This document shows positions 1,673-3,661 of a stretch of 34,245 nucleotides of DNA, one piece after another. Position numbers and translations under genes: made by a program. Origin of the DNA: Methanolobus sp. (GTDB lineage: Archaea > Halobacteriota > Methanosarcinia > Methanosarcinales > Methanosarcinaceae); NCBI RefSeq assembly GCF_030682845.1, contig NZ_JAUXNK010000037.1, forward strand, positions 1-34,245. The letters run 5' to 3'. The notes beneath the pieces were generated by a model that was not told the origin of the DNA, made no database searches, and saw only the letters and a program-made list of their open reading frames with translations. Each line of letters begins with the position of its first letter. The first letter of the stretch is position 1.

Positions 1673-1720
1673 ATCCGTATCCGGGCCATCTCTCACCTTC
1701 ATGAAGACTAAGCAAGGAAA

Positions 1721-1742
1721 CCCATTCCCTTTAGGGGATGGG
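1721..1742. repeat. right-end hairpin of the IscB element
   Basis: An imperfect palindrome with 9-nt arms (CCCATTCCC and GGGGATGGG) and a TTTA loop. It is identical over 22 nt to the copy at 3204-3225. On the plus strand all nine positions can pair, with one G-T wobble; on the minus strand the same position is an A-C mismatch. Subterminal hairpins are the recognition sites of single-strand transposases in the IS200/IS605 group. The iscB stop codon falls at the arm/loop boundary. Confidence 0.8.
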
Positions 1743-2987
1743 AGGAATTGCGTCACTCCTTTTTATTTCCATAAGTATTGTTCGTCTGGCTGTCAATAGT
1801 ATAAGTTCTTTGCATTTTGCGGAACGGTGAACTATTTTTCCTGATAACGTCCTGAGGTCAAAGTATCCTGATTTTCTCCGACCAAATATGAAGCATTTGG
1901 TGTTATTGTAGAGAACTTTATCGAATAATCTGAATCCTTGAACTATATAAGGGGACTGGTTCAGTTTTCGTGTGCCATTTTTCGATGGATTTGCTTTGTG
2001 GATCTGTCGATTATGCTTACGCATCTGTTTTTGTAGGAAATGATAAGGAAGTCTTATTGCATTGAGATTCCCTGCTATGCAGAATGCATCGATCCGATGT
2101 GATTTTGGCAGGTTGTTCTGTATTCTGGTGTCCTTGGTAATGTATCCGAATGTGTTCTTCACATCAGTATACTTAGATTTGAGTTCCTTGAGTAGATATT
2201 TCCTCATTATTCCCATGAATGTCTGATGCTTGAAACCATTGATTTTCTGTAGATTTAGGATTATCTTTCCTTTATGGTATTGATCATGACATGTTTCACA
2301 AAGAGTTAGCAGGTTGTCAGGTCGGTTTCCTCCTGTTTTCCTTGATTCGATGTGATGGATATTGAGTATCGGATCCTTTGATTTTCCCTCACAATGCCGA
2401 CATTTGTGATCATCTCTAAACAGAACATATTCTCTTACGTTCCAGAATCCAAGTTGTTCTCCCTGCTGATATTCTACTTCTGAAATATCCGGATTCTTAA
2501 TCTTCTGGATATCAAACGCTGCAGTCTCAATAACGATAGATGTTATTGGCAATATCCTGTGAACGTTCTCTATCACCTTCAGGTGAGCTACTATCCTGTT
2601 CCTTATTGTTGGAGCTATCCATCCTGGTTTCTTTGATTTTGTTCTGTTATTGAACCTCTTTTGTCTGTATCTTGTTTTCCTGTTCCTCCGGCTTTTTCTT
2701 AATTCTCTTCTTGTTGATATCAGATCGGTTACATCTGTTCTCAGCTGTACTTCCGATGAGAAAAGTTCTTTGTTCTCAGTCGTTGCAGAAAGACCAATGA
2801 ATTTGCTTCCAGCATCCACTCCCAGAACAACTGGCTGTGTATAACCACTGCTACCGTAAAGTAGCTGCAGGGTAAAAGGCTCCCGCTTTACAACTTTAGC
2901 CTTTCCTGCTTTCAGCAGCTTCCTTGTTTTCCCTGGCGAACAGGGCATTAATGGTCTTCCATGTTTGTTAATTATGTAGACTAACAT
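1731..2987 (-). CDS. iscB: IscB RNA-guided nuclease (RuvC plus HNH)
   Basis: IscB is the OMEGA nuclease related to the ancestor of Cas9; it cuts DNA under guidance of an omega-RNA. The 418-residue protein starts with the PLMP domain (GRPLMPCSPGKTRKLLKAGKA). RuvC-I has Asp58 (VLGVDAGSK). An Arg-rich bridge helix lies at about 91-115. RuvC-II has Glu154 (IVIETAAFD). The HNH insert spans about 190-240, with C196/C199, H211/H212, an Asn in NRPDN, and C230/C233. RuvC-III has H297 and D300 (SHRIDAF). About 110 residues follow as the probable TAM-recognition part. All catalytic residues appear intact. I chose the ATG at 2987 over that at 3002 because a GGAG site lies 8 nt ahead and family proteins begin at this point. 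The C-terminus reads into the right-end hairpin. No transposase gene is linked. Confidence 0.93.
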   Translation of the reverse strand: MLVYIINKHGRPLMPCSPGKTRKLLKAGKAKVVKREPFTLQLLYGSSGYTQPVVLGVDAGSKFIGLSATTENKELFSSEVQLRTDVTDLISTRRELRKSRRNRKTRYRQKRFNNRTKSKKPGWIAPTIRNRIVAHLKVIENVHRILPITSIVIETAAFDIQKIKNPDISEVEYQQGEQLGFWNVREYVLFRDDHKCRHCEGKSKDPILNIHHIESRKTGGNRPDNLLTLCETCHDQYHKGKIILNLQKINGFKHQTFMGIMRKYLLKELKSKYTDVKNTFGYITKDTRIQNNLPKSHRIDAFCIAGNLNAIRLPYHFLQKQMRKHNRQIHKANPSKNGTRKLNQSPYIVQGFRLFDKVLYNNTKCFIFGRRKSGYFDLRTLSGKIVHRSAKCKELILLTARRTILMEIKRSDAIPPIP

Positions 2988-3009
2988 TCGGTCTATCTCC
3001 ATTTAGGAG

Positions 3010-3233
3010 TTGTAATCCTTCGCCAATGTTATCCTGGCTTGTTAAGCATGAAACACTGTTCTTACCCAACAGAACTGTTTAATCACATGCAACAGAGCTA
3101 CAGACTAGGATTAACATCTGTAGGTGTTATGACCAGGATAACGTAGTTCTTGTTCTTTACAAACAATTACTGAGGCTAGTCAACCAGAGCTTGTTTACAC
3201 AAGCCCATTCCCTTTAGGGGATGGGTAGTTGAC
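3010..3233 (-). ncRNA. putative omega-RNA scaffold of IscB
   Basis: The minus strand between the deaminase gene and iscB folds into nested stems. GTCAAC (3233-3228) pairs with GTTGAC (3184-3179) and encloses two hairpins (3204-3225 and 3189-3204). A short hairpin lies at 3150-3166. A perfect 10-bp pair (3142-3133 with 3037-3028, GTTATCCTGG/CCAGGATAAC) encloses a 7-bp hairpin (3098-3123) and a long stem (3046-3090). This order, including the CCAGG pairing just before the nuclease start, matches the layout I recall for characterised IscB omega-RNAs. The 5' guide would be the bases immediately above 3233, which lie in the deaminase coding region. The 3' end is approximate. Expression has not been shown. 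Confidence 0.72.
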
Positions 3234-3661
3234 TTGCCTATGTCCTCGTACCAGAGATCCGGCTTATTCTTGATGAATTGTTTCATAATTTCCTTGCACT
3301 CGGCAAGATCGAGGTTTATTACCTCTATCCCCTGCTCTTTCATGAAATCAGGGGCTCCCTGGAAATTCTCCGCTTCTCCGACAATGACCTTCCTGATGCC
3401 AAATTGCACGGCTGCGCCCGCACAAAGGTAACAGGGCATCAACGTTGAGTAAAGGACTGTGTCATTGTACTTGCCAATCCTCCCCGCATTTCTGAGGCAA
3501 GCGATCTCTGCATGTGCCAGAGGATCGTTTTCCTGTACCCTCATATTATGTCCACGACCGACTATCTCTCTGTTCCTTACAAGGACTGACCCTATGGGAA
3601 TGCCTCCTTCAGCAAGCCCTTTTTTTGCTTCATCAATTGCGCATTGCATAAACCTGTCCAT
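3176..3661 (-). CDS. cytosine/guanine deaminase-like protein with element-derived tail
   Basis: A zinc deaminase of the CDA fold, most like yeast-type cytosine deaminase. The zinc and catalytic residues are visible: H50-A-E52 (LAHAEI), and C77 and C80 (MPCYLC). The family part ends at residue 143 with WYEDIGK, which matches the WFEDIG(E) end of yeast cytosine deaminase. The last 18 codons (from STTHPLKG to the stop at 3176) lie inside the left end of the IscB element, so the insertion replaced the original stop. A strong ribosome site (CCGGAGGAG) precedes the ATG. A TATA-like run lies about 55-70 bp upstream, with a 6+6 inverted repeat between. The substrate could be cytosine, guanine or a related base. 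The active site looks intact. Confidence 0.85.
   Translation of the reverse strand: MDRFMQCAIDEAKKGLAEGGIPIGSVLVRNREIVGRGHNMRVQENDPLAHAEIACLRNAGRIGKYNDTVLYSTLMPCYLCAGAAVQFGIRKVIVGEAENFQGAPDFMKEQGIEVINLDLAECKEIMKQFIKNKPDLWYEDIGKSTTHPLKGMGLCKQALVD
3204..3225. repeat. left-end hairpin of the IscB element
   Basis: This is the second copy of the 22-nt palindrome found at 1721-1742. Here it forms one of the two hairpins enclosed by the GTCAAC/GTTGAC stem of the predicted omega-RNA. It is translated in the deaminase frame as part of the added C-terminal tail. Confidence 0.78.

What the first reader, a model, noticed from the sequence alone, without database searches (positions are those of the whole stretch)
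1712..3233. Complete IscB element with an intact nuclease and a readable omega-RNA fold
All RuvC and HNH residues are present (D58, E154, H211/H212, H297/D300). The 200 nt ahead of the gene fold into nested stems, including a perfect 10-bp pair and a GTCAAC/GTTGAC stem enclosing two hairpins. Stem order matches the known IscB omega-RNA layout as I recall it. IscB in a methanogen at this length (418 aa) would be a useful small archaeal nuclease to characterise.
Basis: partly seen in the sequence, partly recalled or inferred. Interest (0 to 1): 0.72.

Follow-up and report, generated by a model that had tools for sequence, protein, structure and literature searches.

The report
Ordinary intact IscB element in Methanolobus
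A methanogen genome carries a complete, once-mobile IscB element, a small jumping gene that makes an RNA-guided DNA-cutting enzyme and its guide RNA; it is a sound new example of a known kind that is common in related archaea.

Summary
The gene at 1731-2987(-) encodes a 418-aa IscB with every catalytic residue named. The region ahead of it is not just foldable: 3009-3233(-) matches Rfam HEARO, the IscB omega-RNA family, over its full length (160 bits, E 2.8e-34). Homologues show heavy compensatory change in the stems and in the nexus pseudoknot. The host is a Methanolobus. A second copy (89% protein identity) lies elsewhere in the genome. Congeners without the element give two empty sites that fix the ends: the element is 1703-3233, 1,531 bp, inserted directly 5' of ATGA at the stop codon of a deaminase gene. 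The sequence 5' of the element is the presumed guide, and ATGA the presumed TAM. The likely role is transposon retention: IscB recuts the empty donor site, restoring the element. Cutting and transcription were not tested. The novelty claim is weak: 21 of 112 genomes of this archaeal family carry HEARO RNA, one has 63 IscB matches, 418 aa is an ordinary length, and published surveys already report IscB-HEARO in archaea. This lineage sits inside a mostly bacterial IscB clade, suggesting acquisition from bacteria. New member of a known kind.

The parts
1703..3233 (-). Whole IscB element, 1531 bp, from GTCAAC (left end) to ...TTAGTCTTC (right end)
   Evidence: Homology to a second copy with unrelated flanks ends near these points; empty sites in congeners and, for the second copy, in G044
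1731..2987 (-). iscB, 418 aa: PLMP, RuvC, bridge helix, HNH, C-terminal WED/TAM-interacting region
   Evidence: NCBIfam guided_IscB 368.9 bits, cut-off 175; Pfam RRXRR and HNH; OgeuIscB and other IscBs in the PDB by sequence and fold
3009..3233 (-). omega-RNA scaffold (HEARO, RF02033)
   Evidence: 160.2 bits, E 2.8e-34, gathering 83; covariation on 46 sequences
3013..3018 (-). 3' arm of the nexus pseudoknot (GGATTA), pairs with TAATCC at 3108-3113
   Evidence: Covariation score 0.702 against 0.198 shuffled and at most 0.161 slid
3108..3113 (-). 5' arm of the nexus pseudoknot (TAATCC)
3234..3249 (-). Presumed guide (first 16 nt 5' of the element: ACGAGGACATAGGCAA), the end of the deaminase gene
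   Evidence: Position known for IscB guides (established knowledge; PMC9640706); no other exact match in the genome, one with 2 mismatches
1699..1702 (-). ATGA at the right junction, presumed TAM; directly follows the guide in the empty site
   Evidence: same motif after the right end of 15 bacterial copies
1721..1742 (-). Right-end hairpin CCCATCCCCTAAAGGGAATGGG
   Evidence: Identical to the left-end hairpin
3204..3225 (-). Left-end hairpin CCCATCCCCTAAAGGGAATGGG, inside the omega-RNA
3176..3661 (-). Host gene: nucleoside/tRNA deaminase family; its last codon and stop (AAA TGA) are split by the insertion, so the frame now runs on into the omega-RNA
   Evidence: Pfam dCMP_cyt_deam_1; intact end in congeners

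Best explanation
This is a complete IscB (OMEGA/HEARO) element of the IS200/IS605-like kind. Shown here: an intact IscB gene, a structurally conserved omega-RNA directly 5' of it, matching hairpins at both ends, two copies in one genome at unrelated sites, and empty sites in congeners reading guide-ATGA. Inferred: a TnpA Y1 transposase supplied in trans moves the element as single-stranded DNA to sites 5' of ATGA. The omega-RNA transcript starts in the flanking DNA, so its 5' guide copies the last nucleotides before the insertion. IscB with this RNA cuts DNA carrying guide plus ATGA, that is, the resealed donor site or an empty sister allele, and repair from a chromosome with the element restores it. 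The filled site is spared because GTCA stands where the TAM was.
For: Family and residues; fold search top hits are all IscB or IsrB. HEARO match. On a sequence-only MAFFT alignment of 46 relatives 86.4% of cells pair, 45 of 60 pairs have a double change, score 0.505 against 0.214 shuffled and at most 0.139 slid; pseudoknot likewise. Second copy at G000:C97, 87% DNA identity, different flanks. Empty sites: GGTAA-ATGA in G050 and GGGAA-ATGA in G047 against GGCAA-element-ATGA here; CTCAC-ATGA in G044 against CTCAC-element-ATGA for copy 2. ATGA follows the right end in 3 of 3 Methanolobus copies. ATGA fits the NNRR TAM of OgeuIscB (PMC9640706).
Against: No transcription, cleavage or transposition data. 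No tnpA in the element; of three Y1 matches in the genome one is intact but lacks these end hairpins, one has an in-frame TAG, one is a fragment. The TAM is inferred from insertion sites, where transposase target choice and nuclease TAM cannot be told apart. At copy 2 about 75 bp right of the ATGA are missing relative to G044, so that junction is not a clean insertion.
Confidence: 0.88

Rival explanations
1. The element is an immobile relic: the RNP may still cut, but no transposase in this genome can move the element any longer.
For: No tnpA inside or beside the element; the genome's Y1 genes are few and mostly damaged; only two copies, 87% identical in DNA, so not very recent.
Against: Two copies at unrelated sites and sites empty in congeners show past movement; the reading frame and all catalytic residues are intact in the window copy, and the frames of copy 2 and of the Methanolobus sp. 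Soudan_28 copy are open throughout.
Confidence: 0.35
2. The IscB RNP has been kept by the host for another role, such as regulation of the deaminase gene or defence, rather than transposon retention.
For: The insertion sits exactly at the stop codon of a host gene and the guide matches that gene, so self-targeting regulation can be imagined.
Against: The guide is simply whatever flanks the insertion; copy 2 and the Soudan_28 copy have different guides. The site is empty in the congeners examined.
Confidence: 0.05
3. The fold ahead of the gene is chance pairing and the gene an ordinary HNH endonuclease.
Against: Rfam E 2.8e-34, folding z -5.1, covariation, IscB-specific model at twice its cut-off.
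Confidence: 0.01

Closest known systems
OgeuIscB and its omega-RNA (PDB 7XHT, 7UTN, 8CSZ; PMC9640706)
   Same: Same domain order; catalytic residues D61/E193/H247/H340/D343 correspond to D58/E154/H212/H297/D300; same RNA stems and nexus pseudoknot; NNRR TAM compatible with ATGA
   Different: 418 against 496 aa; presumed TAM ATGA read from genomes only; activity untested
HEARO RNA and ORF systems (Rfam RF02033; PMC9755519)
   Same: Full-length match to the RNA family, RRXRR-HNH protein
   Different: Nothing of substance; a member
Methanolobus sp. Soudan_28 element (L010; G050:C2)
   Same: 90% protein identity, same end hairpins, ATGA at the right junction
   Different: Different insertion site and guide
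IscB-HEARO elements of bacterial genomes (Selenomonadaceae, Sutterella, Duodenibacillus)
   Same: About 56-63% protein identity, same RNA, ATGA after the right end where it could be seen
   Different: Bacterial hosts; often inserted directly at start codons

Membership tests
IscB (OMEGA RNA-guided nuclease) | Match to a curated IscB model | tested here: met
   NF040563 368.9 bits, cut-off 175
IscB (OMEGA RNA-guided nuclease) | RuvC and HNH catalytic residues | tested here: met
   D58, E154, H212, H297, D300, matching OgeuIscB D61, E193, H247, H340, D343
IscB (OMEGA RNA-guided nuclease) | N-terminal PLMP domain and arginine-rich bridge helix | tested here: met
   PLMP motif near the N-terminus and RRELRKSRRNRKTRYR region in the sequence; Pfam RRXRR 218.5 bits
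IscB (OMEGA RNA-guided nuclease) | C-terminal WED/TAM-interacting barrel | tested here: met
   Predicted strands at 356-409 with pLDDT about 90; fold alignment to OgeuIscB. Overall model only moderate, pLDDT 74
IscB (OMEGA RNA-guided nuclease) | RNA-guided DNA cleavage | not testable with these tools
   Needs biochemistry
HEARO / IscB omega-RNA | Full-length covariance-model match above gathering score | tested here: met
   160.2 bits against 83
HEARO / IscB omega-RNA | Stems and nexus pseudoknot kept by compensatory change | tested here: met
HEARO / IscB omega-RNA | Transcribed in the host | not testable with these tools
   No RNA-seq held
IS200/IS605-like mobile element | Defined ends, no target duplication, insertion next to a fixed short motif | tested here: met
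   Empty sites with ATGA once only
IS200/IS605-like mobile element | Y1 transposase in the element | tested here: not met
   Only iscB and the RNA lie within 1703-3233; Y1 genes elsewhere in the genome. Absence of a nearby tnpA is usual for IscB elements (PMC9755519)

The most novel reading that the evidence does not exclude
Methanolobus acquired a bacterial-type IscB element that still cuts with an ATGA TAM in an archaeal cell, while in Methanosarcinaceae relatives dozens of IscB-less omega-RNA elements, each with its own guide, are served in trans by a few IscB lineages.
Probability: 0.3. Interest if true: 0.45.

Novelty: new member of a known kind. Interest (0 to 1): 0.2.

Why it matters
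It gives a clean, genome-derived prediction (guide, TAM, ends) for an IscB from a family of archaea with genetically tractable members, so archaeal IscB function could be tested directly. By itself it adds one more member to a well-described family.

Tried and rejected
The element's own transposase was sought: the Y1 gene on contig C97 has no hairpin like the element's ends; a tnpA-tnpB element on C91/C81 has a similar palindrome in the opposite orientation and an in-frame TAG, so the link is unproven. The careful tree did not finish; the quick tree was used. Papers on the original ISC, OMEGA and HEARO discoveries are not held, so statements about them rest on other papers or memory. A second target for the guide in the genome was sought; only a 2-mismatch match was found, no more than the reversed control pattern gave.

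Full report
Check of the observation. NCBIfam's RNA-guided endonuclease IscB model scores 368.9 bits against a cut-off of 175, Pfam gives RRXRR and HNH, and the best sequence matches in the PDB are OgeuIscB and other IscBs. OgeuIscB's catalytic residues are D61, E193, H247, H340 and D343 (PMC9640706), which correspond to D58, E154, H212, H297 and D300 here. All five are conserved in at least 101 of 102 relatives. A predicted structure (mean pLDDT 74) matches IscB structures first, with a confident C-terminal barrel.

The RNA. cmscan finds one Rfam hit in the window: HEARO, RF02033, at 3009-3233(-), positions 1-211 of 211, 160.2 bits, E 2.8e-34. HEARO is the RNA later recognised as the IscB omega-RNA (PMC9755519). 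The sequence folds at -74.8 kcal/mol, z -5.1. A similar RNA lies directly ahead of iscB in all 78 relatives examined with upstream sequence, though some of those matches are partial and one (L085) is short and weak. On a MAFFT alignment of 46 of them, made without structure, 86.4% of cells pair, 45 of 60 pairs show changes on both sides, and the covariation score of 0.505 exceeds every shuffle (mean 0.214) and all slid registers (at most 0.139). The nexus pseudoknot known from OgeuIscB is also here: TAATCC at 3108-3113 with GGATTA at 3013-3018. In 34 relatives this pairing is kept by compensatory change, score 0.702 against 0.198 shuffled and at most 0.161 slid. The structure came from the Rfam model and this sequence, which favours register 0 to some extent, but the number of double changes does not follow from that.

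The host and the element's ends. The window is contig 54 of a 2.87-Mb genome. The nearest relative with a named record is Methanolobus sp. Soudan_28 (its 89,172-base contig appears as G050:C2). A second copy on contig 97 is 89% identical in protein and 87% in DNA, with unrelated flanks. Several congeners have the same gene order without the element. Their deaminase gene ends GGTAA-ATGA (G050) or GGGAA-ATGA (G047), and here the element stands exactly between GGCAA and ATGA. For the second copy, G044 reads CCAGCCTCAC-ATGA where this genome reads CCAGCCTCAC-element-ATGA, although about 75 bp to the right differ. The element is thus 1703-3233, with no target duplication. All three Methanolobus copies and 15 copies in four bacterial genomes have ATGA directly after the right end. 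In the bacteria ATGA alone could be the element's own end, but the Methanolobus empty sites show that it belongs to the target.

How it most likely works. From established knowledge of IscB, the guide is the flank just 5' of the omega-RNA scaffold and the TAM lies 3' of the target. The empty site is therefore exactly guide plus TAM, and the filled site has GTCA in place of the TAM. This fits the transposon-retention model (peel, paste and cut) known for the related TnpB elements; its application to this element is inference. The transposase is not in the element. The genome has three Y1 matches: one intact without matching hairpins, one with an in-frame TAG (a pseudogene, or read as pyrrolysine, which was not tested), and one fragment.

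Novelty. In the same archaeal family 21 of 112 genomes have HEARO RNA and 20 of these 21 have an IscB match; one single-contig 4.1-Mb genome has 63. [quoted passage not shown] The length is typical. What is somewhat distinctive is descent: in a quick tree the five Methanolobus rows form one clade (100) inside a clade of 69 rows of which 63 are bacterial (99), apart from the IscBs of other Methanosarcinaceae. The sample was gathered with this protein as query, which favours its own neighbours, so transfer from bacteria is likely rather than proven. The element is a new member of a known kind.

Noticed in passing
Genomes G081 and G097 (loci L092, L093, L111, L155-L181): Many near-identical omega-RNA elements of about 336-341 bp without iscB, each with a different 5' flank (guide); 21 that fit a search pattern (which itself required GTGA at the end) have 21 different flanks. 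41 and 36 matches in the two genomes, with only 40 candidates scored of 154 and 58. Looks like a swarm of non-autonomous omega-RNA elements guided in trans.
   Followed up: partly
G000:C91:61629-61943 (L008) and C81 start (L137): tnpA-tnpB element of the IS605 kind with an in-frame TAG in tnpA and an end palindrome (CCCATACCCTTTAGGGTATGGG) close to the IscB element's hairpin; contigs break inside it.
   Followed up: partly
window 3176-3661: The deaminase gene lost its last codon and stop to the insertion and now reads on into the omega-RNA before a TAG.
   Followed up: partly
L015, L021, L023, L026, L033, L037, L043, L047, L051, L053, L063: In Sutterella and Duodenibacillus the ATGA after the element looks like the start codon of the next gene, so insertions sit exactly between leader and start codon.
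   Followed up: no
G049:C43 (L091, L144): A third Methanolobus genome has an IscB of the other, Methanosarcina-like lineage (34% identity), with one in-frame TGA.
   Followed up: no
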